NCBI GenBank assembly: GCA_958296035.1
Contig: OY282431.1
Span: forward strand, 2,774,037 to 2,838,036
Direction: 5' to 3'
Source of the DNA: Paracoccaceae bacterium
GTDB lineage: Bacteria; Pseudomonadota; Alphaproteobacteria; Rhodobacterales; Rhodobacteraceae
Length of the DNA: 64,000 nt
The position numbers and the translations under genes were made by a program. Position 1 is the stretch's first letter. Each line of letters opens with the position of its first letter. A model generated the notes under the pieces. It was given only the letters and a program-made list of their open reading frames with translations. It did no database searches and was not told where the DNA came from. This document shows, piece by piece, positions 41,297-63,525 of this stretch.

Positions 41297-41766
41297 GTGC
41301 TAGCCTGAGTTCGATTTTGCACAATTTTCCCTCAGCTTCACGTCTGGAAGATGTCGGTATTGGCGACTTGATCGAGGGCATCGTCAAGCGGGAACACAAG
41401 GTCGCCCGTGTCACTGACATCTTTCCAGCGGATTTGCCAGGACCCATGACGCAGACGTACTCAGCCCCGTGAACTCGGATTTGCACGATTGTGTAGCGAA
41501 GCATAGTGTTTCAACCATGTGCTGGATGCTGGCCGGTCATTTGGTCATCAAGGTGTCGGTGAATTGCCAACTACTCTCCAGTTTGCCCGCTTACTTCTGT
41601 GCAACATAACTTTTCTTGATTTATTCAAATACACATTTTGGCTTCCCGAGAATTGGCATGCATCAGTCCTGGAGAGTTCCCGCAGGTTTATATTGGCGAA
41701 TTCAGGATGCAGGCTGCCAAGCCGTAGGTGCCGCAGTTGAGAATTGACGCAGGCAGGAAAGAATGG
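41297..41766. other. region upstream of the R-M gene
   Basis: About 470 bases without a gene. An A/T-rich block around 41600-41650 (TTTTCTTGATTTATTC) stands out from its surroundings and may contain the promoter of the downstream restriction-modification gene. Confidence 0.3.
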
Positions 41767-44700
41767 ATGCCGCAAGGAGGTAAAACCACAGCATCAAATC
41801 GCCGTAAGGTGCATTCCCGAGCAAATGCGCTTCTGGAAGGTGGCTCGAACGAAGCAAACATTCGCAACCGCCTTTGCCGCTTGCTCGATGTGCTTAACTG
41901 TGACGAGTACCGCCTGGAATACCCCACAGGAGGCGGGCGGGCTGACATCTATCTGCCGCGTCAACGCACCATTATCGAGACCAAAGCGATCGGCGGTGCC
42001 GAGGCGCCTGCAGGTGGCAATGAGTCACCGTCTGAGCAGCTTGACCGGTACATGCAGGCCGAGATCGGCAAGGTGCGGGAATCCCTGTTCACCAATGAAA
42101 GCGACCGCTCCTGGACCGGTATTCTGACCGACGGGCGGGTCTGGCACAGCTGGTCATATGTGCACCGCGACAACCCGTCGGCACAGGAGGAGAAGCAGGA
42201 CTTCAAACCCAATAGTGGGCGGGAACTTGCCGAATGGCTGGGCCAGGAGCTGGCCGGCGACCCTGTCAGCAAGCCGTGGATACCGGCAAATCCTGCTGCT
42301 CTGTTCGCCGAGCATGCAAAGTCTTTGCGAGCTGTTTACAACGAATTGACAGGTCGGCAAGCCGTAGAGACGGACACCAGGCTCGCCTTGTGGCGCGACA
42401 TGCTGCACAGTTCCGGCATGGAGCCGCAAACGGATGCTGCTCGCCACAGCCTGTTCCGTACACATTCCTTTCTGATAGCGCTGGCCCGCGGCGTGGTCTG
42501 GACGATGGAACACCCGCATGAGGAGCCGGACCCGAAAACTCTGCTGGGCGACGGCATTGTGTCCTGGATCGTGCAAACAACCGTTGGCCGCCAATGGGCA
42601 GCTGGGTTGTTCGAGACAATATGCGGGTTTGAGTGGCGGCAGCGTCGCGGCGACGTGCTGCGCCCGCTTTACGAGGCGTTTGTCGGCAGTGATGATCGTA
42701 AGGACTTCGGCGAGGTCTACACACCGGACTGGCTGGCCGAGCTTGTGGTCAACGAAGTGCTTGATGAGGATTGGTGTGGACGTGCATTTGAGGCCGCACG
42801 TGGCGAGATTGTCAATCATCAACCTTTGCGCGGGATCGGCGTTCTTGATCCCTGCTGTGGGTCCGGCACGTTCCTTTATCACGCCGCCAGGCGGCTCCTG
42901 GATTATCCCGACATCTCCCGTCAGCCGTCCGGCAGGCAAGCAGACATAGTCAGCCGCCTGGTGTACGGCATAGACATCCATCCAGTGGCCTGCGAGTTTG
43001 CCCGAGCGACACTGCTGCGGGCGCTCCCTGCCGAGCCGCCCGGCGGCGATGCAGCCCTGCGGATCTGGAACGGCGACTCACTATTACTGCATGGTGCCGA
43101 AAGTCAGTCCCTGTTTGCCCCACAAAATGGCGAGGTGGTGTTCGTGTCACCGGCCGGAAGCGAGGTCCGGCTGCCGGAAGCGTTCGTCACGCGGCCGGAT
43201 TTTGCCAGCTTGATCAAGGACATGACGGGTGCTGCTGTCCAAGCGTTGCCAATGCCATCACATATTGAGCACAGCGTGCAGGATGATGCCGACCAGAACC
43301 AGTTGCGCGCCAGCCACGCTACCTTGCAGGAGATCATCAGGAACGAGGGCAATTCAGTCTGGACCTGGTTCATGCAGCAGACAGTCGGCCCCTATCTCCT
43401 GGCTCGGCACAAGGTTGACCGCATTGTCTCCAATCCGCCCTGGGTCAAGATGGCAACCATTCAGCACCAGACCCGCAAGCGGCGGCTTGAGGCGTTCGCC
43501 AGGGGGATGGAGCTGTGGCAGGGTGGTATACAGGCTCCGCACACGGATATCGCACAACTCTTTATCAAACGCTGCCGCGAGCAGTATCTGCAAGATCACC
43601 TGAACGCTCCAGCTGCATGGGTCGTCAAGCACTCGGCGATCAAGGGCGGCAACTGGGAGAAATTCCGCGCCTGGCGACGAGGTGACGGTGCCGAGGGCAA
43701 GGAGCAACGTCATGACTTGGCCTCCACAGGCCAGATACTTGATCTGGCTCCGGCACAGGTGTTTGGTGGTGGTGATGCACAGAAATCCTGCGTGCTGATC
43801 GACAACATGCGTACCGCGCTTGGCAGAGATGTGCCGACCCTTGTGGCCCATTGCCCCTCGGACCGGCCGAATGCCGGCTCGACACTGCAGGAAGCGAATG
43901 AGTGCATTGAATGGAATGTACCCGAGGCGTCATTGCCGGAGGGGGAGTCCGGTTACAACGGCATGTTCAGGAACGGCGCCACCATTTTTCCGCATGTTCT
44001 GGCCATTGCTGACCGGATCGCAGGTGATGGCGAAACCAGAACTGTCACCACCCGACGCTCAGTACAGTCACCGTGGAAGGAGGTACACCCCCCGGACGGC
44101 GAGATCCCTGCAAGCTGGCTGGCTCCACTCTTGCGCTCGGAACATCTGTTGCCATTTGTGCTGGCTCCAGAGGGGCCGGACAGCGCAATCGTGCCGGTTG
44201 ATGAAGAGGGGCAGTTGCTGGATGAGAAAGCCGCTCTTGCAATTCATGGATGGCGGGAACTGCAAGACATCTACCGGGAATTCCGAGGGCAAGGTCAAAG
44301 TACTCCCGCTACATTGCTGGAAAGGCTTGATTATCAGCGCAACCTATCGCGGCAGCTTCCGCTTGTGCAGGCTGAGAGGGTTGTCCCGCTCACCCGTGTG
44401 ATTTATCCGGTGTCAGGAGACATCATGCGCGCCTGCAGGCTGCCTGCCTGCGCAGATGTGGTCGGTCATACAATCTATCATGCCACATTCGATGCGCCTG
44501 AAGAAGCTGCTTATCTCGTGGCATTGCTGAATGCGCCGGCGCTCAATCCTGCCTTTGTGCAGTCACGACGCAGTGGCCGGCATTTTTCTCTTCATCCATG
44601 GCGGCGGGTACCTATTCCGCGCTTTGACCCCGGCTGCAGGCTGCATTGCGAGATCGCAGCCCTCTGTGTGGAGATTGAAGATGAGACCGACGCATTCCTG

Positions 44701-44823
44701 GCTGCGCAGCAAGGTAACCTGCCGCGCAGCCAGATCGGCCGCTCGAAGCAGATCAGACAGTCCGGACTGTTTGCCCGTCTGGATGATATGGCAAGGCAGT
44801 TGATGCCGGAACAGTGCCCTTAG
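41767..44823 (+). CDS. single-chain restriction-modification enzyme (type IIG / Eco57I-like N6-adenine methylase with N-terminal nuclease)
   Basis: A 1018-residue protein. The N-terminal PD-(D/E)xK-like nuclease motif is GGRADIYLPRQRTIIETK (Asp60, then Glu71-x-Lys73). The central gamma-class amino-methyltransferase has motif I LDPCCGSGTFLYHAARRL (Asp near residue 361) and the catalytic motif IV SNPPWVKM (near 556), with a long insert between them. The C-terminal part (about 760-1018) should be the target-recognition domain. This single-chain layout fits type IIG enzymes that cut and methylate. No separate specificity subunit or endonuclease gene is adjacent. The ATG is chosen for AGGAAAG upstream; a GTG 13 codons earlier is possible. 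Bordered by an NYN relic and a transposase relic, so probably acquired. Confidence 0.87.
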   Translation: MPQGGKTTASNRRKVHSRANALLEGGSNEANIRNRLCRLLDVLNCDEYRLEYPTGGGRADIYLPRQRTIIETKAIGGAEAPAGGNESPSEQLDRYMQAEIGKVRESLFTNESDRSWTGILTDGRVWHSWSYVHRDNPSAQEEKQDFKPNSGRELAEWLGQELAGDPVSKPWIPANPAALFAEHAKSLRAVYNELTGRQAVETDTRLALWRDMLHSSGMEPQTDAARHSLFRTHSFLIALARGVVWTMEHPHEEPDPKTLLGDGIVSWIVQTTVGRQWAAGLFETICGFEWRQRRGDVLRPLYEAFVGSDDRKDFGEVYTPDWLAELVVNEVLDEDWCGRAFEAARGEIVNHQPLRGIGVLDPCCGSGTFLYHAARRLLDYPDISRQPSGRQADIVSRLVYGIDIHPVACEFARATLLRALPAEPPGGDAALRIWNGDSLLLHGAESQSLFAPQNGEVVFVSPAGSEVRLPEAFVTRPDFASLIKDMTGAAVQALPMPSHIEHSVQDDADQNQLRASHATLQEIIRNEGNSVWTWFMQQTVGPYLLARHKVDRIVSNPPWVKMATIQHQTRKRRLEAFARGMELWQGGIQAPHTDIAQLFIKRCREQYLQDHLNAPAAWVVKHSAIKGGNWEKFRAWRRGDGAEGKEQRHDLASTGQILDLAPAQVFGGGDAQKSCVLIDNMRTALGRDVPTLVAHCPSDRPNAGSTLQEANECIEWNVPEASLPEGESGYNGMFRNGATIFPHVLAIADRIAGDGETRTVTTRRSVQSPWKEVHPPDGEIPASWLAPLLRSEHLLPFVLAPEGPDSAIVPVDEEGQLLDEKAALAIHGWRELQDIYREFRGQGQSTPATLLERLDYQRNLSRQLPLVQAERVVPLTRVIYPVSGDIMRACRLPACADVVGHTIYHATFDAPEEAAYLVALLNAPALNPAFVQSRRSGRHFSLHPWRRVPIPRFDPGCRLHCEIAALCVEIEDETDAFLAAQQGNLPRSQIGRSKQIRQSGLFARLDDMARQLMPEQCP

Positions 44824-52368: not shown

Positions 52369-52526
52369 TTCTTTCTACCCTTTATTCGTTTTGACCCGGA
52401 GGCTTCTGACCGCCAACAAGCGGTATCTTCTCCAGTATGCTCGGCGCCTGGCCGGATTATTCCGACACAGAACCCGCGGTTTTACTGTCGGAGCAAAGCA
52501 TTCAGCTTCGGGCAATCGACAATGTC

Positions 52527-52544
52527 AACATTTCGGTAAGGTGC
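52527..52544 (+). repeat. imperfect direct repeat, copy 1
   Basis: AACATTTCGGTAAGGTGC; the second copy, at 52658-52675, differs by one base (AAGTGC). The 131-base spacing and position next to the defense operon suggest an insertion-sequence end or a binding site; undecided. Confidence 0.5.
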
Positions 52545-52657
52545 GCAAGCCTGCTTGATCCCGCTTTGAATGTCAACATTCGCGTCATTCTCCATTCTCA
52601 AATTCACACTCTCAAGGTCCAAACAGGCAATTTGAACCACTATTCTGCCAGTGGCCA

Positions 52658-52675
52658 AACATTTCGGTAAAGTGC
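52658..52675 (+). repeat. imperfect direct repeat, copy 2
   Basis: AACATTTCGGTAAAGTGC, in the same orientation as copy 1, with a single A/G difference. Confidence 0.5.
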
Positions 52676-52903
52676 ACGAGCAAGAACGGAATCAAATCAA
52701 AGTTGCTGCAACTCAAGGCTTCGAGGTCAGCCATGTGGTGCAGGAAGGTGGCTCGTGATTTTCGGGAAGTAGCAACAGCAAACAATCCGATCTAACCGAT
52801 GAATTTGGAAACACCAAATTGCTGGTTTTTCGGGAGCAATCGAACAGACACTGTAGGTAATTCCTACAGCCTCAAGTTGAGAATTGCATCTGGGGGCGGC
52901 CCC

Positions 52904-55900
52904 TTATCGACCCGCCGAGACCTCCCTAATCACGCTGCATTCCGTGGGAACCGACATCAGGTTTTCAATGCCTGTTGTAATGTCCAGTCGCAGACAAATG
53001 TCAGCATCTTCGTCTATTGTTCGGGCTACAACAACCCGGTCATGGAAAGTTCCTTCATTGTCGGACCAGGGGGAAAAAATCGGATCAATGGCAATTTGGG
53101 AATTCCTGAATTCTGACTGCATCGCGCCAAGCTCGTCGAGTTGTGACTCTTCATCCCGATGGCCGAACTTCCAGGCAATATTGACCTGGTCCACGTTAAC
53201 TCCGGAATCGATGACCGCACCTAGGAATGAAGCCAATCGTTCCCTGCTACGCGGTCGAGCAGCACACCAAGGATCTTCAATTCGAACCGACACCCTCCGT
53301 CCCACAATAGGCTTGAACAAGGGTGCAATCTCGCGGGCCTGACCAGGACGAAATCGAAACTTGCGAAGTTGGTCGGTCAAAGCTGAGAGCGGCCCTGGTA
53401 TCTCAGAAAACCGACTGTACATTGTTGCCAGCCAACTGTCGGCCATCCCAACTGTACTCTGATGGCTAACCGCAGCCAGCGCACCCTCCATGAGTGGTAG
53501 CGAGTTCGGAGCGACATAGAATTCCTGCACTTGCTGTCCAATTGGCAACGAGAGCCTTGGTGCGATCTGGAGAAGGTCGTCCGGCACAGTATAGAATTTC
53601 AACCGATTGGACTTCTCAAACTTAACCAGTTGGCATGCCACCTCCCGATCAACCCCTGTCGCCAACCTCCGGTTACACATGCTCGGCGTTGTCACAGCTA
53701 AAGCCTTCCGATCTTCCCGTTCGGTCAACCAATTGCGCAGCGCATTCGCGCTTGCCAATGCCTCGCCACGAACCGAGGCACCAAATAACCGCGGGCCGGC
53801 CACGATAATCTTATCTCTTGCCTCCACTAAACGAAGAGCAAGTGCAGTCGATCCAGTCTGGACCACTGGCACTGCCATATCTGGAGCGTGAGCCGGGAGT
53901 GGAACGCTTTTTTCCAACAGCGCGCGAAGCCAGTTCAGTACCAGTCGGCGGTCAAACCTATCCCACAGCGCTTGATTAGAGTAGTCGTTCATGCATCGCA
54001 TACAGCTTGTTTCGCACTCGTCGCCCCTGGGACAATCCAAAACGGCCAATGCATATGAGATCAGGTTACGTGCTGAGAATCGTGAGTCTTCCAGCAACTT
54101 TCTACAATAGCCGGCACCTCCAGGGGTTGTGTCTGAAAGAATAACGAGAGGCACCCCGCCCGGACTCTCAACTGTAACACGTAACTCTCTCAAGTCTATG
54201 CCTAACAAGTCTGCCGCCCCAATGCGGATCGACTCTGCCAGAGTTCGCAAAAACCTGTCTAAAGCTGCAAATTTCTCATCTTCCGTTCCGCTCTCCATGG
54301 TCGGAAGTTCTTGTTCGATCTTGATTCCCCGTAAATCGGTCTCAAGCACATGGGCAAGGTCTGTCGGCCTTTTGAGACCATCTGCATGACATGGATCTCC
54401 GGATCGTGGGTTATTGTGGCGATGTGTCTTCTCTCCGGTGCCGACATATGCCTGCGGTGCCGGCCGAGAGAACTCGCAACATGGACACCAATGGTATCCT
54501 GTCCCGCTCGGCCCCCGGTTTAGTATTATCAACCGCCCAGTTAGTTCGCCTTCCTTAGGAATTGCCGGTGCAAAGAACTTCTTGACCAACACTAGATTCG
54601 TTTTCTTGAAGTGCTCCGGCTGGGCCCGCGTCAGCAATCGAGCTTCATCTACTTGCTTATGACGAAGGCGACTAGCACCTGGATCTCGACCTGTACGATC
54701 CTCGTATGACGTGAGGAAACCGACAGGTTCCAAGAATGGCCTGCGTTGGCCGCCTGGCTTGTCCATGCATTGTGGACAAACATCTTCGAAATCATCCCAT
54801 TCGGGCCGAATATCGCAGTGCTGACATTTTGAACAAACCCGATGAAAACCCGTTTCCATCCAGACGTCATCGCTACCATGCGTTGAGCGCCTGGAGATTC
54901 CTCTGCTCGTCCAAATTCGGCCTCCGGCCACAATCTCCGATCCGGGCGCATATTCGGCGATTGCCAAACTTGCATCGCGTCCAAGCTGCAATGCTCGATC
55001 ATCACGACCTCTGGCACCGCGCTCTGTCACAATTTCAAGATGAATTGAGTGAACTGGGAAACTGTAGGTAGGGATCACTGCTGCGCGCGAAAGCACCTCG
55101 ACCGCAAAACGATCAAGAAAGCGCCGCATGTTTCCAATTTGAGCCTGCATTCTGCGGGTGGCCCGCTCCATTTCGCTTCGTGTCGCATCAGACTTGGAAA
55201 GAACTTGTAGTGCCTCTTGGCGATCTTTCTCCATTCTGCGCCATCTGTCAGAAACTGTTTGCACCCATCGCTTTACTTCGTCAATGATGTGCTGGGAGAG
55301 TGCCTCGCTCCTTAGACCAACCTGTTCCAATTGGGGCGGCAAGCCTGCGATCATGGATTCTGCCGTGTTCAGAAACTTCATCCCCTCCGCGCTCCCAAGC
55401 CATTCCACCAAGTCATCACCGACCCTACATTCTTCGTCAACTGTCAAGGTTTCGCCGAGAATGTCTTTCAACCTAGGAGCACCTGTGCGGACATTACCAG
55501 CGAGACGTTTTCTTAGCCATCCTGCCAAGACACAGGACACCTGGTGACGCCTAAAAAAGCTAGGATTGTCCAGGGAGAGATACGGTGCTGGCGGGGGCGT
55601 TTCCAGATAACCTCTGAGCGCGTGAAATTGTGCTTGATCATAACGACTTGATCGAGCGACCATTAGCGCCATCGGCGCCGCTTGGGCACGTCTGCCTGCT
55701 CGTCCAGCTCTTTGCTGATAATTCGCTATTCCTGGAGGCACATTCCGGCAGAGCACTGCGTCCAGACCGCCCAAGTCAACACCCAATTCCATTGTTGTCG
55801 TACAACTCAGGACATTGACCTCACCCTCTCGAAAACGCTCCTCTATCTCGGCTCTTTCGACCACACCGATTGCGGCGGTATGCTCCCGGGCAATGCCGCT

Positions 55901-58837
55901 CAGCGGTTTTTTCCTATACCGGGCGACGTAGTGATTTCGACGTTGCGTCTCACTTCGTTCTTTCGCCTGGATCTTGACCAAACGACCCTTACAGCGCCAA
56001 GCCAAACAGATTCCGTCCAGGTTGACTTGAGAAGTTGTACCGCAAATACGGCAACGGAAGAGCGGGTCTTCTTGCACAGGAGAGAACTTCAAAGAAGCAA
56101 GATTCAAGACCTGCCCAAAACCACGTGGTTCCAAGATACGGTTAATGGGCCGCACTGCCTCTTTCCAGAACACTTCTAGAAGGTCACGCGCCTCACATTC
56201 GTCAAAGCCCAAGCGGTTTACAAGAACCCAAAGCCGACGGTTGGTTCGAGAGGATTCCGGCAAGAGCGTTTGCAGCCGTTTCGCTTTGGCTGTGCGTGTC
56301 AACGCCCAACAGATATCGGCGCTAGCGAGACCCTCGCCCCAGACCGAATCGTCTGTCAGGTCAATTACTTCAAGACTGTTTATGGCACGCGAATAACGAA
56401 TGAGATCAAAAAGGAACTTGCAAAGGCCTTTCGCTAAATGGCGACGTTTCGAAGATAAATGATCCTCCAGATTCTTTTCTACTCTGCTGGACCCCAAATA
56501 CGACACTTTCACCAATCCGAGAGATTCAAGTGAGACGCGGCGAAGTCCCCTACAAAACTCTCCTGCAATCAGAGCTAAGAGGCGATCCTTCGCTGTCGCG
56601 GTGGTCATGGGATTGGGATTACGTCGGTCATAGAGGCAAAATCCCTCGCGGCGAAGCATTCCCCAAACACCGTCTCGCAGGCCTTGCAGATCCTGCGGTT
56701 CGTCTGGATCGCGATCAAGGGTTCGCACTATTGCGCCCCGAACAGCCAAGTCGCGCGATGTGCGTTCGAAGAATGGAGCAAAGAATGCCGCGTCCTGACG
56801 GCTGTCCGCGAACACCAGTAGATTGCGTCCTTTCATTGGTGCCGTGCTAGATCTACCAACTGGTTCCGGTAGCGATTCAATAAGCGTTTGGGCGCTTACG
56901 GCTGCCATTGCGTCATCGCCTGGATGAATCGATGTGACAGGCTCGGCGAAGCGGCCTCCCCTTTGTCCGCATGACGAACAAAGCTCGACATAGTCACGTC
57001 TTTCCTCGCTATCCTCTTTCATCTTGGCTGGTTCAAGGGCTAAAATGCCCTCGCCAGGTCCATTAGCCAGCATTCCGGTTTCGGGGTCGAAGAAGAAGGG
57101 TTGTTCCGATTGCTCCTTGACTGGCGATTCTTCCACTTCCAGTTCGGCGGCCATCGTTCCTGCTGCAGTCAACCGCAGTACCCTTCGCTTGACCCATCGG
57201 GCATCGTCAGGACGAGGGTGAAGTTGTCGCCTGTCATCCCACGCTTCCACATAGGGCTCGCCACAGTTTCGACAAACGAGCAAAAGGTATGCCGGCGCGT
57301 TGTCGATATGCGTTCCAGTCCGAGATATTCGGATTTTGCTCCAGTGCTCCGGATCGTTAGTTGTGAGACGCAAGGCCACACCCTCGACTCCGGATGCAGC
57401 CAGATGGTACCGGGCAGGTAATAATGGAAATGCTCCAGGCAGGGACGGCTTCGCCATGACACCCACGGAGATCAATGCCGTTAGCGCTTTGCGTGCATCA
57501 GTCTCGCTAGCCGAACTGAAGACTCGCTTGGCCAGATCTTCGAATGGAAGTGCCCGTCCGTTTAATGCACTGGCAACCGCCCAAACCTCTTCTCGTGGCG
57601 CCAGAACGTCAATCAGGCCATCACCGAGTGCTCGTGCCTTGTCTACGACAAATCCGTTCAAGCCTTCGGCCTTCACCGCATCATTCCAGTCGTCGACGAT
57701 ATACTCTTCGTTTTCGACTCTCATGGTCCGGTTCTCTCGTAGGCACGATAAAACCTTGCCTAGTCGAATCCAGTGCGATACAGGCACTGCAGGTTCTGTG
57801 TGACCGCCTGATAGCGCTGGATGTGGCTGCCGTTCGGAGAAAATAACCGCTCCCTCTCCGCGAGCGAACGGTTCGCCAAAAAGATCCTCGGCGAATCGCG
57901 CCAGTTCCTCGCAACGAGAAGCATCAAGGCTCGCGGATGTACCGACACAACGCATCGTTCCCGGCTGTATTCCCAATCGAGCTTTTAGTTTTCGCAGCAG
58001 AAAAGCAACTTCAACTGCTTGTGCGCCGGCATAGGTATGGATTTCATCCAAAACGAGCCAGCGGATCATTGATCCAGCCAAAAGTGCCCGATTTCGAGGC
58101 AACAGCAGGATATGCTCAAGCATTGCATAATTGGTGACGAGGATATGTGGAGGCCGCTCTAGCATTTCCCCGCGTGACAACAGCCAATTGTGCGGCACGC
58201 TTTCGGCAGTCGGAAAATTACTTTGGAATGTTGGAGTAGCAACAAGGCGTTGCTGCTCCTGAATGCGAGAGGCATTGGAACGAACCTGACCAGTGAAGCG
58301 TCCCAAGGTGATTCCGGGATCGCAGAGATCCCGAAAAAGTAAACGTGCAATTCGGTGCATCTGGTCGTTGGCTAGAGCGTTCAACGGGTAAACAAGAATA
58401 ACCCGTACACCCGGCTTCTCCAGGTTTCCTTGTCGAACCAAGTCATCAATTAGAGGATACAGGAAGGATTCAGTCTTTCCAGAGCCCGTACCAGTAGCGA
58501 CGAGGTAATTCTCGTCGCGACCCATCGCCGCTGCCTGGTGCAGGTGAAGGTCTCTCCTGTATAGTTTCCGACCTTCGTCAGTCGATGCCAGTACCTTCCA
58601 AGTTTCGTGAAGTACTCCTTCGGCCACAAGCTGTTCGACCGAACCTTCTTTCTCAAAATCTGGAAGACTTTCTACAAACGGACCCTTGACGAGACCGGCT
58701 TTCAAACAGGCCTCCCAAATCTTGTTGGACAACCGCGGCGCCCTAGCAAAGGACACTGGAGCAGCCGTTGTTATATAGCGCGCGAGAACATCCTCCAGGT
58801 CGCACTTAAAGCGCATCGGATCGATTTCGGAGGTCAT
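52904..58837 (-). CDS. druE: giant DEAD/DEAH helicase with DUF1998, Druantia DruE-like
   Basis: A 1977-residue protein. The N-terminal SF2 helicase has Walker A ATGTGSGKT (114-122), VYPLNALANDQ (Ia), VTNYAMLEHILL and LVLDEIHTYAG (DEIH at 264-267). The helicase C domain (about 1010-1090) has SCTTTMELGVDLGG and NYQQRAGRAGRR. Cysteine pairs form several putative zinc ribbons (CRNCG, CSSCG, CRICG, CSKCQHCD/CPQCMD). The DUF1998 region (about 1480-1640) has GPSGTGYHWCPCCEFSRP, DTTPGGAGYCRKLL and CPRGDECETSCMRCMNDYSNQ. A further ~330 residues end with a FHDRVV motif resembling phospholipase-D-like MIT C-terminal domains. Size, domain order and the upstream partner fit DruE of Druantia type III. The start overlaps the druH stop (ATGA). 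Confidence 0.85.
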   Translation of the reverse strand: MTSEIDPMRFKCDLEDVLARYITTAAPVSFARAPRLSNKIWEACLKAGLVKGPFVESLPDFEKEGSVEQLVAEGVLHETWKVLASTDEGRKLYRRDLHLHQAAAMGRDENYLVATGTGSGKTESFLYPLIDDLVRQGNLEKPGVRVILVYPLNALANDQMHRIARLLFRDLCDPGITLGRFTGQVRSNASRIQEQQRLVATPTFQSNFPTAESVPHNWLLSRGEMLERPPHILVTNYAMLEHILLLPRNRALLAGSMIRWLVLDEIHTYAGAQAVEVAFLLRKLKARLGIQPGTMRCVGTSASLDASRCEELARFAEDLFGEPFARGEGAVIFSERQPHPALSGGHTEPAVPVSHWIRLGKVLSCLRENRTMRVENEEYIVDDWNDAVKAEGLNGFVVDKARALGDGLIDVLAPREEVWAVASALNGRALPFEDLAKRVFSSASETDARKALTALISVGVMAKPSLPGAFPLLPARYHLAASGVEGVALRLTTNDPEHWSKIRISRTGTHIDNAPAYLLLVCRNCGEPYVEAWDDRRQLHPRPDDARWVKRRVLRLTAAGTMAAELEVEESPVKEQSEQPFFFDPETGMLANGPGEGILALEPAKMKEDSEERRDYVELCSSCGQRGGRFAEPVTSIHPGDDAMAAVSAQTLIESLPEPVGRSSTAPMKGRNLLVFADSRQDAAFFAPFFERTSRDLAVRGAIVRTLDRDPDEPQDLQGLRDGVWGMLRREGFCLYDRRNPNPMTTATAKDRLLALIAGEFCRGLRRVSLESLGLVKVSYLGSSRVEKNLEDHLSSKRRHLAKGLCKFLFDLIRYSRAINSLEVIDLTDDSVWGEGLASADICWALTRTAKAKRLQTLLPESSRTNRRLWVLVNRLGFDECEARDLLEVFWKEAVRPINRILEPRGFGQVLNLASLKFSPVQEDPLFRCRICGTTSQVNLDGICLAWRCKGRLVKIQAKERSETQRRNHYVARYRKKPLSGIAREHTAAIGVVERAEIEERFREGEVNVLSCTTTMELGVDLGGLDAVLCRNVPPGIANYQQRAGRAGRRAQAAPMALMVARSSRYDQAQFHALRGYLETPPPAPYLSLDNPSFFRRHQVSCVLAGWLRKRLAGNVRTGAPRLKDILGETLTVDEECRVGDDLVEWLGSAEGMKFLNTAESMIAGLPPQLEQVGLRSEALSQHIIDEVKRWVQTVSDRWRRMEKDRQEALQVLSKSDATRSEMERATRRMQAQIGNMRRFLDRFAVEVLSRAAVIPTYSFPVHSIHLEIVTERGARGRDDRALQLGRDASLAIAEYAPGSEIVAGGRIWTSRGISRRSTHGSDDVWMETGFHRVCSKCQHCDIRPEWDDFEDVCPQCMDKPGGQRRPFLEPVGFLTSYEDRTGRDPGASRLRHKQVDEARLLTRAQPEHFKKTNLVLVKKFFAPAIPKEGELTGRLIILNRGPSGTGYHWCPCCEFSRPAPQAYVGTGEKTHRHNNPRSGDPCHADGLKRPTDLAHVLETDLRGIKIEQELPTMESGTEDEKFAALDRFLRTLAESIRIGAADLLGIDLRELRVTVESPGGVPLVILSDTTPGGAGYCRKLLEDSRFSARNLISYALAVLDCPRGDECETSCMRCMNDYSNQALWDRFDRRLVLNWLRALLEKSVPLPAHAPDMAVPVVQTGSTALALRLVEARDKIIVAGPRLFGASVRGEALASANALRNWLTEREDRKALAVTTPSMCNRRLATGVDREVACQLVKFEKSNRLKFYTVPDDLLQIAPRLSLPIGQQVQEFYVAPNSLPLMEGALAAVSHQSTVGMADSWLATMYSRFSEIPGPLSALTDQLRKFRFRPGQAREIAPLFKPIVGRRVSVRIEDPWCAARPRSRERLASFLGAVIDSGVNVDQVNIAWKFGHRDEESQLDELGAMQSEFRNSQIAIDPIFSPWSDNEGTFHDRVVVARTIDEDADICLRLDITTGIENLMSVPTECSVIREVSAGR

Positions 58838-61800
58838 GGGCGGTCCTTAGCAATTTGCCAAGTTAGGAGGAAGAAGGTGAACAATTCGGGCGCCAGACGA
58901 AGCAGTACTGCCAAGTTACATAAGACCCTAGAATTTGACCATCCAAGCTTGTGTCCGAGTTTCGCTACCAATTCGTCCGCCTCCCCCGTCCGGCTGGCAC
59001 GTGCAAACATGGAGAGACATGCGGCAATCCAGAGGTCGATGCTGTAAGGTTCTGTGTGATCTGCTGACCTAAGCGGGACTCGAGGTCGCTCATCATCAGG
59101 TGTCAATTCCCAGGTCAATCGGCTCAATCGGTTCAGGTCCTCTTGCCGACGGCTATTGGCACCAGCTTCGGCATCCAGGTTGGAGAACATCCCTGCTGTC
59201 CGCAAGCGATCCACAAATCGACGGTGGGATGCGCGCCAATGATCTGGGCCCAAGACAGGCGTTCCTCTCCAAAACCAGCCGGCTGAGGGGTCATTGTCTA
59301 CAATCTGGAGATTTCGAAAAAACTTGCATGCATCAAACTCACGGAGCGGCACATTGTATTTCTCCGCGTCCAGGCTATTCCGAAATGCCAGGTAAACCGT
59401 ACCATGCAACTGAGACTGATCTCTTAGACGTGCCTGACCTAAGGAATACAACCTGGCCAACTCAGCCATCCCTGTGTTCAGCGACCCCGACAGACTGGCA
59501 AACGTTGCGGTCGACGCTCCATACAGCCCGGGGAAAATATGGATCGGATGCATCACTGGAATCCAATTTCGCGATGTGTGGTCGGGCGGCGCAATTGCAC
59601 CAGCCATCATCAGTTCCCTCGTTCCCCCTGGCTGTGCCAATAGAGATCTACCGACCTCTTTCCAGCGTGATATGAGCGGTGTTTTGATCGCCGACCAGCA
59701 GTCAGCCGCGTAACAGTCAGCCAGCCACCCGCACAGTGTCTTGAAACGCTTTCGGGTATCCATATCCACAGACCCGTAATTGGCGTCGCCGAAAAGGATT
59801 GCATAGGTTTCGCCTCTGGAATTGCGCAATGGGTGCCACGTACTCTGACTCTCTGCCTCTGCCTCCGGCCGAAGAAATAGCCGTGCAAGAACAAGACCGT
59901 CGTCAAACTCAATTGATGTTACAGTCAATTGGATTTGTGTTGGATCTCCATCTATCAACTCGACCTTTAGCCAAGAAGGTCGGCGTGTCGAAACCGGACG
60001 CCTGCCCAGGCTTGCCTCCACAAATTCTGTTTTTCCACTTTCACGCTCCACTTCCAGTGCCAGAGCATCCATACGCCGCATGAGATTGAGGCGCAGACGA
60101 AGACCGTCAACAGTGGGAATACGTTGGACGGACAGCGGCTCGACGGACGACACAATCTCAAACAACAGCAATTCATTGCCATTTGCGCGGCGGAGAATGA
60201 CTCTGCTGTCAGTTGTAGCTTCAAGGAGATAACGGACTGCCAAATTGCGGGAAAGCCCACGAGCGAAAGGATGGTCCTCTCGTTGCCCACGAACTCGCAA
60301 GGTGGCTTGCGGGTCAGGGCATCGAATCGAAATGGTATCAAAACGGTCGTGCTCATCCACAGTAAGACGCGTGTTGAGCGGAAGTCCCAATTCCGACCCG
60401 TCTTCTGATCGGCGCCTAATGACGACCACATCCGGCCACGGTAGGTCGAAGGGAACGAAATCACCATCGATTTCGAATACGGCACGGGCCAAAACGTAGC
60501 CGCCAGAAACATCAAGGGAAAGACGACCCCTGCTATCTTGGGTTACGTTTTGAGACAGCTTCAGCACAAAATTTCTCGGTGCAGGGTTGCTACGATAAAC
60601 CAGTCCATCGCCACCTGCAAAGGCGGGCCACACCAAAGATTGAATGGAAATACCCGTGGTGCCAGGTGGATTCAAACCATGGGAAGGAGCAAGCAGGTCG
60701 ATCCGCATTCTCACGGGATCTGAATGTACAACATCGCGAAACTCTGAGAAGAGAGTGTCAATGCTGATTTCACCCAATCCTCTGACTACATTGATCTCAG
60801 CTTCTGCCTCCGCCTTCCCTACTGAAAGTCTCAATCGCCGCAATTCATCCCGCTCGAATCCGGTATTGACTTCAACCATGGCCGAGGGACCGTACAACCG
60901 CCCACTTGGTCCACTGGCCACTATACCACCACGAATTGTTAGACTACGGCGAGGTTTGGCACGAAGACGCACCTCTCCTCCTTGGGTTTGAAGTACTATC
61001 GGCGAATACCCCAATTGCGTATATGCGATGAAACTGGATGTTCTGGTCTCTAACGCAGGCTCACCTTCAACCGAGAACTCACGTCTTGACAAAATGACCG
61101 TGTCGGTTGTCTCGATTTCGAAATCGCCCGACTGCCCTTTCAATTCCTTGACGACGCGGCCTGACATGCAATCGAAAATGGCCAGCGCCTCGGGGTCAAC
61201 AAGAAAATCTAGCTCATCTCTGCATTCATTGGCATTCCAGCGCAGGTGAGCAGGCCATGGTTCTGGAAGCACCCAGTCCTCGCCACCTCGAAGATTATAT
61301 GGACTGATATCTTCGTCCAGCCACAAGCGAATGTGACCGACGACCCTAGGGGCACGAACCGTCAACCCATGGGTGTTCCAAATCAATTGAAGCTTCGGTG
61401 AAGCACCAACCACGTTGCTCCCACCGCCTTTGGACGGTGGTCTGTCTTTACCTACTTCATCCTCTAGAATCTTACGGAACCGTTTCTCGATAGGATACTT
61501 GGCAACAAAGGCATCAGGATTCTGACGAATTTTGGCAAAAAGAGCCGCATGCCAAGCTGTCTCGTCCCAAAGAATTGCACGGCGCGGAGTTACAACGGAC
61601 GGGGGCAAGAAGGTCAAGGAATCATCTTCCCAACGGTTCAACATAACAGTCGCCTCTGTTGGTGGCGGGCCGAATGCAGCCTCTTGACGGAGGAATCCCT
61701 GGATGAGTCGTGGAAGAATCGGTATTGGGACACCGGCATGGAGCAGATAAACGTCGACCATCCGGCTAAAACCGTGGGTCGGCAGACCAAGCCTGTTGCA

Positions 61801-62127
61801 TACACAACAAAATCTGTCGAAAAGGATTTCCCGATGCCGTTGGACGACCAAGGGCACACCAAGCCTGTCTTCCAAGTGCCGGTAGATGGCGTTATCGAGT
61901 TCTCCGTAATTCTCGCTTAAGGCCTTTGCCACGCACCATGTAGAAACATAAGGGAATTGGCCAAAAAGACTCGAAATTCTGCCGGGATCACCTCCCAGGA
62001 AATTCTTCGATTGTTGGAACGCCGACTGCCTTTGAGGCTCGCTAACAGGAACAAGGCCAATAAAGGGGGGCATCTCTGGTGATCTCAATAGACGGCTCAG
62101 CAGTGTGTCAGTGGACCGGCAACCCAT
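58834..62127 (-). CDS. druH: Druantia type III DruH-like protein
   Basis: A 1097-residue protein without any catalytic motif I recognize. The N-terminal ~200 residues are helical (LLSRLLRSPEMPPFIG and on). The middle (about 290-870) looks rich in beta-strands, with many short alternating-hydrophobic segments. The C-terminal ~200 residues are again helical and include RRFVDRLRTAGMF and LTWELTPDDERPRVPLRS. Identification as DruH rests on size, on being the only partner of a DruE-type helicase, and on translational coupling to it. The ATG at MGCRSTDTLL has AAGGG eight bases upstream; a GTG 17 codons earlier has no such site. Alternative: an uncharacterized partner of a DUF1998 helicase outside Druantia. 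Confidence 0.65.
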   Translation of the reverse strand: MGCRSTDTLLSRLLRSPEMPPFIGLVPVSEPQRQSAFQQSKNFLGGDPGRISSLFGQFPYVSTWCVAKALSENYGELDNAIYRHLEDRLGVPLVVQRHREILFDRFCCVCNRLGLPTHGFSRMVDVYLLHAGVPIPILPRLIQGFLRQEAAFGPPPTEATVMLNRWEDDSLTFLPPSVVTPRRAILWDETAWHAALFAKIRQNPDAFVAKYPIEKRFRKILEDEVGKDRPPSKGGGSNVVGASPKLQLIWNTHGLTVRAPRVVGHIRLWLDEDISPYNLRGGEDWVLPEPWPAHLRWNANECRDELDFLVDPEALAIFDCMSGRVVKELKGQSGDFEIETTDTVILSRREFSVEGEPALETRTSSFIAYTQLGYSPIVLQTQGGEVRLRAKPRRSLTIRGGIVASGPSGRLYGPSAMVEVNTGFERDELRRLRLSVGKAEAEAEINVVRGLGEISIDTLFSEFRDVVHSDPVRMRIDLLAPSHGLNPPGTTGISIQSLVWPAFAGGDGLVYRSNPAPRNFVLKLSQNVTQDSRGRLSLDVSGGYVLARAVFEIDGDFVPFDLPWPDVVVIRRRSEDGSELGLPLNTRLTVDEHDRFDTISIRCPDPQATLRVRGQREDHPFARGLSRNLAVRYLLEATTDSRVILRRANGNELLLFEIVSSVEPLSVQRIPTVDGLRLRLNLMRRMDALALEVERESGKTEFVEASLGRRPVSTRRPSWLKVELIDGDPTQIQLTVTSIEFDDGLVLARLFLRPEAEAESQSTWHPLRNSRGETYAILFGDANYGSVDMDTRKRFKTLCGWLADCYAADCWSAIKTPLISRWKEVGRSLLAQPGGTRELMMAGAIAPPDHTSRNWIPVMHPIHIFPGLYGASTATFASLSGSLNTGMAELARLYSLGQARLRDQSQLHGTVYLAFRNSLDAEKYNVPLREFDACKFFRNLQIVDNDPSAGWFWRGTPVLGPDHWRASHRRFVDRLRTAGMFSNLDAEAGANSRRQEDLNRLSRLTWELTPDDERPRVPLRSADHTEPYSIDLWIAACLSMFARASRTGEADELVAKLGHKLGWSNSRVLCNLAVLLRLAPELFTFFLLTWQIAKDRP

Positions 62128-62448
62128 GTTCTTGCCCTTACGCCAACAATAGTATTCACTCCATGCGGTTGGGTTCACGACTACAACAAATAAGTACGCA
62201 TGCCTAGATGAGCACAGTTGCTGCTTGCTAGCACCGTCTCAGGTATCCTCGTCGCGCAATCGGCATAATTCTTCGACGCAAGCTTGAGTGCGGTGGCTTG
62301 GGTCCCAAATGACTTGCCCTGAGTTCGACTTTGTAGTGCGTCGTGAATGGCGCGTTTATCTAATGGGTGCGATTCCCACGCAACACTTGTCGCTTCGGTT
62401 GGGTGTAGCCAGGGCGGTTTGCGGAGATAAAATGTAGACCATTGGCAA
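62128..62448. other. region upstream of the Druantia-like operon
   Basis: About 320 bases that should hold the druH promoter and the terminator of the Gfo/Idh gene (same strand). No gene, terminator or attachment site could be confirmed. Confidence 0.35.
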
Positions 62449-63525
62449 CTACCCGCTTTCGACTTCTATTGAGCGGTTTTCCAAGGCAGACTGTTCTGCA
62501 GCCGATGAAAACCGCAATATCTGTCGCGCCTCGTAGGCCTGCAGCACAGGCTGACCGCCGTTCTTGAGAACGTTGATATAGTGCCGGGTCGAATGCACGA
62601 ATGACTGTTCCCAACTTACATTCATGTCCCTGAATTCGGTCAGTCCGCCGTCCCGAAACAAGACCAGCGGCACAGCACCGGCCAGGTGTCCATGTCCGCA
62701 ATTGATCCAGATCACACCCTTCGTGCCGGTGATTTCGACCCGATCATCCTGGGCGTAGTAAGGTGTGACAATTTCGAGCTCGGGAGAATAGACGATCTCC
62801 AGATTTCCGACGCGATTGCCCGGAAACCTGAACGATATCATTGATTGGGCATCGTACCAGGCACCATCCTTCCGCTGCACCCTGCCTATGAAGGCATGGA
62901 CTTCCCTTGGATTGCCCATGAATCCCCAGGCCAGGGCAAATTTGTGGTGTCCATCATCGAACACCAGCGGGCCGCCTCCCGAGCGAGACCTTTGCTGTCG
63001 CCATTCAAGAGCGCTCGCCGAAACCTTCCAGCCTGTGCGACTCGTGCCGGGATTGCTCTTAATGCGAATCGACTGTGGCTCACCGATGGCATTCTGTGCG
63101 ATGAGTTGCCTGGCTCTGGCCACAGGCGGGTGAAACAGAAAATTCTCAAAGACCTTGAATGGCCTGTCATAGGTCTCGACAGCCTCAACCAAGCGGTCCG
63201 CTTCTTCCAGTGTTGGGCACATCGGTTTTTGCAGCGAGATTGCCTTGCCGGCATCCATGGCCGCCAATGCCGCGGCCAGGTGAAGATCGTGGGGCAACAG
63301 GATTTCAACGAGATCTATGTCAGGATTCTGCAGGAGTTCTTGCAGGTCATCGGTAATTTTGACTTCACCTATTCCCCAGTCATGAGCCTTGCGCTGTGCC
63401 GCGCCCGGGTCTGCATCGCATAGCATGCGAATACGGGTGGCGGGGTTGTTCAGGTACTCGATGACATGAAGGTCGGAAATTCGACCTGTGCCAATTAGCC
63501 CGACCCCGATAGGACTGTCTTTCAC
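62449..63525 (-). CDS. Gfo/Idh/MocA family NAD(P)-dependent oxidoreductase
   Basis: Sugar or polyol dehydrogenase-type protein of 358 residues. N-terminal Rossmann fold: IGVGLIGTGRISDLHVIEYL; the family's EKP motif appears as LQKPM (Lys100-Pro101). The C-terminal domain has GGGPLVFDDGHHKFALAWGFMG, which contains the conserved D-x-x-x-H-H segment. A GTG start with GGGAAGAG upstream is preferred since the family N-terminus begins there; the frame extends 27 codons upstream. The substrate is unknown. Divergent from a secreted protein at the right edge, often a sugar-binding protein in such arrangements. Confidence 0.87.
   Translation of the reverse strand: MKDSPIGVGLIGTGRISDLHVIEYLNNPATRIRMLCDADPGAAQRKAHDWGIGEVKITDDLQELLQNPDIDLVEILLPHDLHLAAALAAMDAGKAISLQKPMCPTLEEADRLVEAVETYDRPFKVFENFLFHPPVARARQLIAQNAIGEPQSIRIKSNPGTSRTGWKVSASALEWRQQRSRSGGGPLVFDDGHHKFALAWGFMGNPREVHAFIGRVQRKDGAWYDAQSMISFRFPGNRVGNLEIVYSPELEIVTPYYAQDDRVEITGTKGVIWINCGHGHLAGAVPLVLFRDGGLTEFRDMNVSWEQSFVHSTRHYINVLKNGGQPVLQAYEARQILRFSSAAEQSALENRSIEVESG

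What the first reader, a model, noticed from the sequence alone, without database searches (positions are those of the whole stretch)
52904..62127. Two-gene, 9.2-kb operon matching Druantia type III architecture
A giant DUF1998 helicase of 1977 residues is translationally coupled (ATGA overlap) to an upstream protein of about 1100 residues and nothing else. Established: Druantia systems are defined by DruE, and type III by DruH plus DruE. Here the operon sits between glcDEF and a sugar dehydrogenase gene. Inference: an anti-phage system in an alphaproteobacterium.
Basis: partly seen in the sequence, partly recalled or inferred. Interest (0 to 1): 0.75.

Follow-up and report, generated by a model that had tools for sequence, protein, structure and literature searches.

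The report
Druantia-like defence pair with unfamiliar partner
A two-gene bacterial operon pairs a giant DNA helicase of the Druantia antiviral kind with a large protein that is not recognisably the usual partner, so it looks like a little-known variant of a known phage-defence system.

Summary
In detail: a 1977-aa DUF1998 helicase (52904-58837, minus strand) overlaps by ATGA an upstream gene starting at 62127 (1097 aa). The helicase is DruE-like (PADLOC 548 bits; best non-DruE profile 88). The "type III" label fails its defining test: none of 11 partner-family members hits a PADLOC profile at E<=1, the NCBIfam DruH model misses it, and profile comparison with 14 true DruH proteins gives 0.4% probability, no better than reversed controls, although the same method links subgroups inside each family at E 1.6e-30 or better. 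An ML tree keeps this helicase lineage outside the DruH-linked DruE clade; its exact place is unresolved. In 26 of 28 related contigs DruE follows the partner; the other two end first. Across 21 intact pairs the genes co-diverge (r 0.98) and the partner changes faster in 209 of 210 comparisons, as expected of a sensor. Low GC3, patchy presence and defence genes near some relatives fit mobile defence. Best reading: a Druantia-like helicase(-nuclease) system with a partner family absent from the libraries used. Structure prediction was off and the published III-B branch could not be compared, so a hidden DruH fold or III-B membership stays open.

The parts
52904..58837 (-). druE-like gene: 1977-aa SF2/YprA-family helicase with MZB (DUF1998) module and a C-terminal extension
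   Evidence: seven PADLOC DruE profiles 312-548 bits, best non-DruE 88; Pfam DEAD, Helicase_C, MZB; best PDB match 9tu7, E. coli DruE
58834..62127 (-). partner gene: 1097-aa protein of a family without a credible library match
   Evidence: no hit in PADLOC (E<=0.1; 11 members at E<=1), Pfam, PHROGs; NCBIfam only E 0.27; PDB only E 0.7 or worse; relatives in 26 genome and 2 viral contigs
58834..58837 (-). ATGA overlap of the two genes (translational coupling is inferred)
   Evidence: sequence; 4-nt overlap in 17 of 21 intact pairs, window included
58472..58492 (-). Walker A GTGSGKT, residues 116-122, Lys121
   Evidence: invariant in the 11 aligned sequences
58037..58048 (-). DEIH (motif II), residues 264-267
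55688..55717 (-). motif VI QQRAGRAGRR, residues 1041-1050
53993..54034 (-). cysteines of the MZB/DUF1998 module, residues 1602-1615
52907..53914 (-). C-terminal domain (residues 1642-1977), possibly PLD-like: IEDPWC (1853), FHDR (1931), GIENLM (1956)
   Evidence: ZorD1 C-terminus match 6.3e-9 over 1820-1969; sub-threshold MIT_C (PLD-like) E 0.02; FHDR and GI(D/E)NLM in all 9 sequences displayed, IEDPWC varying in two

Best explanation
A horizontally acquired two-gene anti-phage system of the Druantia kind in which a DruE-like helicase works with a lineage-specific large partner that stands where DruH stands in type III. By analogy with E. coli Druantia III, the helicase would load on 3'-tailed single-stranded phage replication or recombination intermediates, move under ATP, and cut DNA through its possibly PLD-like C-terminal domain; the faster-evolving partner would sense infection and license the helicase. 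Shown here: intact motifs, conserved side-by-side pair, co-divergence, faster partner change, foreign base composition, defence neighbours in some relatives. Inferred: substrate, direction, nuclease activity, sensing role, phage protection. An AddB gene and no RecC match were found in the host, so a link to end-processing like that reported for E. coli would probably run through AddAB.
For: DruE identity with controls: window 548/514 bits against DruE1/DruE3; two ARMADA-type helicases 296-349; type I against DruE3 542; E. coli type III against DruE1 570; a cyanobacterial helicase 785/725; this genome's second helicase 532/488. Pair conserved: DruE directly downstream in 26 of 28 fetched loci, the other 2 contigs end first; the 11 helicases that match at least the first ~1640 residues in a 390-genome sample all have the partner, two fragments showed none. 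Co-divergence r 0.98, 0 of 2000 permutations; partner less identical than DruE in 209 of 210 pairs. GC3 0.515/0.518 against 0.561-0.778 for 16 other window genes that I picked. Patchy: 3 of 9 genus genomes, 2 of 398 phylum genomes, own genome counted. Defence neighbours: 4 of 10 hand-picked neighbours match PADLOC at 1e-8 (HmaC in L060, Mokosh-like in L069, Ppl/mads-like in L076, an McrB-like ATPase two genes upstream in L080); MmeI-like protein 8 kb away in the window. AddB/RecC. Mechanism analogy: PMC13192584, sections 9, 11 and 13 read.
Against: No experiment and no structure. 6 of the 10 hand-picked neighbours had no PADLOC match at 1e-8 and no background rate was measured. A DruE-like score alone does not prove a Druantia system, since the own-genome second helicase of unknown setting scores alike. 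The C-terminal domain does not align significantly with that of DruH-type DruE (0.2%), whereas a cyanobacterial one does (2.8e-7), and 10 of 21 intact pairs lack it (lengths), so cutting may not be essential. No minus-strand promoter-like site was found in 62100-62460 (sigma-70 consensus scan only).
Confidence: 0.75

Rival explanations
1. It is ordinary Druantia type III whose DruH has diverged beyond sequence recognition; the partner has the DruH fold and acts as DruH does. (This would refine, not overturn, the defence reading.)
For: Same gene order, similar size (1097 against 1119 aa), adjacent or overlapping genes in both, and DruH is described as more divergent than DruE (PMC13192584). Grouping the helicase with the DruH-linked clade plus the Roseomonas helicase is not rejected (AU 0.44), and KH and SH do not reject the DruH-linked clade alone.
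Against: 0 of 11 members hit any PADLOC profile; hhalign 0.4% against reversed controls 0.8 and 1.0%, while divergent DruH halves link at 2.3e-68 and the partner's own clades at 1.6e-30 or better; DruH occurs in the same bacterial family and its model finds it there (8 of 295 genomes). A crude propensity plot was uninformative.
Confidence: 0.42
2. It belongs to the branch that Bell et al. 2025 call Druantia type III-like / III-B, a known branch whose partner is not described in the parts I read. (Compatible with the best explanation; it would lower the novelty.)
For: That branch is described as distinct, occasionally with the PLD domains and most often with no nuclease domain; here 11 of 21 intact pairs have a C-terminal domain and 10 do not (lengths).
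Confidence: 0.4
3. An ARMADA, DISARM or Dpd system, or a relic of one.
For: ARMADA helicases are close relatives, and grouping the window lineage with them is not rejected (AU 0.56).
Against: No BrxHII-like helicase or PglX-like methylase beside it (flanks judged by eye); two ARMADA-type helicases score 165-252 bits lower than the window's on DruE1/DruE3; DpdJ 85 and DrmA 47 bits; partner plus DruE is the recurring pair.
Confidence: 0.04
4. A DNA-repair helicase operon (YprA/MrfA type) with no defence role.
For: Shared SF2-DUF1998 core; YprA 6znp is the third PDB hit.
Against: Far better PDB match to DruE (1.8e-64 against 9.8e-17), patchy distribution and foreign composition.
Confidence: 0.05

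Closest known systems
Druantia type III (DruH-DruE; E. coli, PDB 9tud, 9tu7)
   Same: two genes, large partner first, DruE-family helicase second; similar sizes; the ATP-site lysine is residue 121 in both
   Different: partner is not detectably DruH; helicase at cross-type similarity and outside the DruH-linked clade in the ML tree (exclusive grouping: AU 0.0035, KH 0.065, SH 0.097); C-terminal domain not alignable with that of DruE III
Druantia type III-like branch / III-B (Bell et al. 2025, PMC12458937)
   Same: described as a distinct DruE branch with variable C-terminal nuclease
   Different: could not be compared: no sequence of it was within reach
Druantia types I, II and IV
   Same: DruE-family helicase
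   Different: one partner gene only; it has no PADLOC match and no profile link to the 10 partner proteins tested from loci that I took as type I, type II-like or DUF4338-associated (single sequences)
ARMADA I/II
   Same: related YprA-family helicase
   Different: no BrxHII-like or PglX-like gene seen beside it

Membership tests
Druantia (any type) | DruE-family helicase | tested here: met
   PADLOC DruE1 548, DruE3 514 bits against BrxH 88, DpdJ 85, DrmA 47; two ARMADA-type controls 296-349
Druantia type III | DruH (YjiT family) encoded with DruE | tested here: not met
   0 of 11 members with a PADLOC hit at E<=1; no NF038336 hit for the window partner or the genome nor for 3 relatives; hhalign 0.4%; positive controls. 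By sequence only: fold not testable
Druantia type III | two-gene operon, partner then DruE | tested here: met
Druantia type III | DruE falls with DruH-associated DruE | tested here: inconclusive
   ML tree excludes it; AU 0.0035 rejects an exclusive grouping, KH 0.065 and SH 0.097 do not; grouping that adds the Roseomonas helicase is allowed; constrained searches were short or cut
Druantia type III | two C-terminal PLD domains, last one predicted active | tested here: inconclusive
   weak PLD-like signals at 1820-1969; no significant alignment to the DruE III C-terminus
Druantia type III-like / III-B | helicase in that branch | not testable with these tools
   reference sequences not reached
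Druantia type IV | DruF and DruL with DruE | tested here: not met
   definition from a PMC8565338 passage; one partner gene only, without any PADLOC hit; I did not check which DruF/DruL profiles the library holds
[quoted passage not shown]
   operon and flanks judged by eye; definition from PMC12458937 section 5
DISARM | separate DrmA helicase and DrmB DUF1998 genes | tested here: not met
   helicase and MZB in one chain; DrmA 47 bits
Dpd | DpdJ helicase | tested here: not met
   DpdJ 85 bits against DruE 548; NCBIfam DpdJ 79 bits, cut-off 800

The most novel reading that the evidence does not exclude
A separate Druantia type: a DruE lineage, so far found in alphaproteobacteria, that uses a second, unrelated family of about 1100-aa partner in place of DruH, which would mean that DruE is a common effector onto which non-homologous phage sensors have been fitted more than once (the Roseomonas plasmid pair with a 1325-aa partner and this genome's second helicase with a 903-aa partner would be further cases).
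Probability: 0.4. Interest if true: 0.7.

Novelty: new variant of a known kind. Interest (0 to 1): 0.5.

Why it matters
The profile sets used here do not recognise the partner, so a rule that asks for DruH plus DruE would pass this system over and DruE-based defence may be under-counted. If the partner is not a DruH, comparing it with DruH would separate what is common to DruE activation from what is sensor-specific, and would make testable whether DruE is a shared effector with exchangeable sensors. A host with AddB and no RecC match also offers a test of whether the reported RecBCD dependence of E. coli Druantia III is general.

Tried and rejected
A Chou-Fasman propensity plot did not recover the known layout of DruH and was dropped. 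I looked for actinobacterial (III-B) pairs without success: the taxonomic centre could not be set and the three actinobacterial plasmid loci opened were ARMADA-like or unclear. A viral-contig scan with the DruE alignment returned only the contig already known. Short repeats downstream of the helicase were tested as a mobile-element end: the 24-nt pattern occurs once in the genome at up to 3 mismatches, so this was dropped. The glcD and Gfo/Idh homologues lie on different contigs in the 5 other same-genus genomes where both were found, so a clean empty site could not be shown.

Considered and rejected: Dpd, DISARM, ARMADA, housekeeping YprA (scores and gene content above); type I, II and IV partners. 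My type labels for the comparison loci come from their annotated neighbours; the three cyanobacterial loci that I labelled type II are doubtful, because the one scanned scores best on DruE1 and DruE3 and their C-terminus resembles that of DruE III.
Full report
Observation. The upstream gene most likely starts at 62127, a position at which several relatives also begin. Pfam finds DEAD, Helicase_C and the MrfA Zn-binding domain (MZB, the DUF1998 of the papers) in the helicase.

The helicase. Among PADLOC profiles it scores 548 bits for DruE1, 514 for the best DruE3, 370 for DruE2 and 344 for DruE4; the next families are BrxH 88, DpdJ 85, SngC 84 and DrmA 47. Controls put this in scale: E. coli type III DruE gives 2180 for DruE3 and 570 for DruE1; a Pseudomonas type I helicase gives 2332 for DruE1 and 542 for DruE3; two ARMADA-type helicases give 349/326 and 305/296 for DruE3/DruE1; a cyanobacterial helicase gives 785 for DruE1 and 725 for DruE3; the second helicase of the window's own genome gives 532/488. 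So the window helicase sits at the level of a different Druantia type and above ARMADA, but such a score is not unique to known Druantia systems. The best PDB match is E. coli DruE 9tu7, E 1.8e-64 for the single sequence and 7.5e-97 for the 11-sequence lineage profile.

The partner. It has no match in PADLOC, Pfam or PHROGs, only a chance-level hit (10 bits, E 0.27) in NCBIfam and PDB matches no better than E 0.7. The E. coli DruH control hits a PADLOC DruH profile at 2457 bits and NCBIfam NF038336 at 953 bits; a Rhodobacter DruH hits both too (95 and 177 bits). None of 11 partner-family members, the window's included, hits any PADLOC profile at E<=1. DruH itself is found by its model in 9 of 398 genomes of the phylum and 8 of 295 of the same bacterial family, and not in the window's genome. 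Profile-profile alignment of 25 partner sequences with 14 DruH sequences gives 0.4% probability; two reversed controls give 0.8 and 1.0%. The same method links two halves of the DruH set at 2.3e-68 and the partner's clades A-B, A-C and B-C at 4e-128, 1.4e-52 and 1.6e-30. Twelve other proteins from DruE loci (10 from loci I took as type I, type II-like or DUF4338-associated, one Roseomonas, one own-genome) were compared as single sequences, a weaker test, and none linked to the window partner. I conclude that DruH is not detectable by sequence; remote fold homology is not excluded, because structure prediction was off.

Relatives. A genome-contig scan gave 98 pattern matches, 31 confirmed, 26 loci; viral contigs gave 36 matches, 2 loci. 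Of the 26 record titles, 25 name an alphaproteobacterium (by my knowledge of the genera) and one only Pseudomonadota. DruE follows the partner in 26 of 28; the other two contigs end within the partner or about 350 bases after it. In three loci (L057, L058, L062) the helicase frame is split, in L058 the partner too. In a 390-genome sample of the order, the 11 helicases, own included, that match the whole query or its first ~1640 residues all have the partner upstream; several of these genomes are the same as. Two fragmentary helicases (L044, L045) showed no partner in the stretch fetched, and other partial hits were not followed. Within the genus 3 of 9 genomes carry the partner, within a phylum sample 2 of 398, the own genome counted in both. 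Plasmid records with a match are two of Sinorhizobium, with an apparently broken clade C relative; phage records none at E 0.01.

Evolution. Over 21 intact pairs (8 broken or truncated loci dropped) the partner is less identical than DruE in 209 of 210 comparisons; the identity matrices correlate with r 0.98, reached by 0 of 2000 permutations. This mirrors the published statements that DruH is more divergent than DruE and that the two trees agree (PMC13192584). The 4-nt overlap is kept in 17 of 21.

Tree. A 32-taxon maximum-likelihood tree (1462 columns) has the window lineage monophyletic at 100 and the DruH-linked DruE clade at 100, separate from it; the Roseomonas helicase joins the latter at 97; the deeper joins have support 28, 38 and 73. 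Forcing the lineage to group with the DruH-linked clade alone is rejected by AU (0.0035) but not by KH (0.065) or SH (0.097). Grouping it with DruH-linked plus Roseomonas (AU 0.44), type I (0.16), the cyanobacterial helicases (0.34), ARMADA (0.56) or the own second helicase (0.55) is not rejected. The constrained trees came from short or interrupted searches, so this is approximate.

C-terminus. A C-terminal domain (residues 1642-1977 here) is present in 11 of 21 intact pairs and absent from 10, by length. FHDR and GI(D/E)NLM occur in all 9 sequences displayed; the IEDPWC stretch reads LEDPYC and IADPYI in two of them. Signals for a PLD-like nuclease are the ZorD1 C-terminal match (6.3e-9) and a sub-threshold MIT_C match (E 0.02, in one of four C-termini tested). 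It does not align significantly with the C-terminal region of DruH-type DruE (0.2%) or of the cyanobacterial helicases (0.2%), although these two align with each other (2.8e-7). A nuclease role is therefore inferred.

Context. The operon's GC is 0.534 against 0.569 for the rest of the window, and its GC3 0.515 and 0.518 against 0.561-0.778 for 16 other genes that I picked. A 1031-aa protein at 41728-44823 has one PDB match, MmeI, at E 2e-4. In genome G964 of the same genus a BseCI-like DNA methylase (E 2.1e-6) lies about 1.2 kb from the Gfo/Idh homologue, on the side where the window has the operon. Of 157 neighbour ORFs of at least 150 aa in 23 relatives I scanned 101: PADLOC matched 31 families at 1e-10, 25 of them shown, several being redundant profiles, with no background control; Pfam showed transposase, conjugation and relaxase genes in two members each, among metabolic genes. 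Of 10 hand-picked neighbours 4 matched PADLOC at 1e-8 (HmaC, Mokosh-like, Ppl/mads-like, and a McrB-like ATPase hitting restriction profiles) and 6 did not. The McrB/McrC-like names in L080 are my reading of the sequence.

Mechanism. From PMC13192584 (abstract, sections 5, 9, 11, 13 and 19, and passages), E. coli DruE unwinds 3'-tailed DNA, cuts long DNA and has PLD domains, while DruH is a likely sensor without a stable complex with DruE. The M. smegmatis paper (PMC13316683; abstract, section 2.1 and passages) reports a DruH-DruE interaction needed for defence. I transfer the helicase part with fair confidence because the motifs are intact, the nuclease part with less, and the sensor part by analogy of position and rate. 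The own genome (3.64 Mb, one contig, 95% complete) has an AddB match over cut-off (697 bits) and no RecC match; RecB and RecD were not searched.

Literature. Bell et al. 2025 (PMC12458937; abstract, sections 5, 7, 26 and passages) describe a distinct Druantia type III-like branch with variable C-termini; its main text has no occurrence of DruH, and I saw no account of that branch's partner. Searches for Druantia with Rhodobacterales, Rhodobacteraceae and Alphaproteobacteria found 0, 0 and 3 papers, the last three seen only in the listing; three further searches on Druantia terms are. The library is open-access only and supplements were not read, so this is no proof that the pair is unpublished.

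Noticed in passing
own genome, L046:6435-10751 (-) and L046:10645-13356 (-): A second DruE-like helicase (1438 aa, DruE1 532 bits) follows a 903-aa frame with no Pfam match above cut-off and an Ig-like stretch by eye: perhaps a second helicase-plus-large-partner operon in the same genome.
   Followed up: partly
window 41728-44823 (+): 1031-aa MmeI-like (type IIL) restriction-modification protein about 8 kb downstream of the operon (one PDB match, E 2e-4; motifs by eye).
   Followed up: partly
L049:4998-14247: Roseomonas mucosa plasmid pair: a 1325-aa protein with no link to DruH or the window partner, followed by a 1731-aa DruE3-like helicase; the 1325-aa protein is in four plasmid records at 99.9-100% identity.
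   Followed up: partly
L080 (IMG/VR contig): A contig listed as viral carries the pair directly after McrB/McrC-like genes and an ImmA/IrrE-like gene (names by eye).
   Followed up: partly
L132:167-1759: In a same-genus genome a BseCI-like DNA methylase lies near the Gfo/Idh homologue, on the side where the window has the operon: possible defence hot spot.
   Followed up: partly
L003:11908-15850: Sinorhizobium medicae plasmid with an apparently broken clade C partner relative among insertion sequences and TIR/SIR2 genes.
   Followed up: no
window 52521-52681: Two imperfect 24-nt repeats between the helicase and glcD; the 24-nt pattern searched occurs once in the genome.
   Followed up: yes
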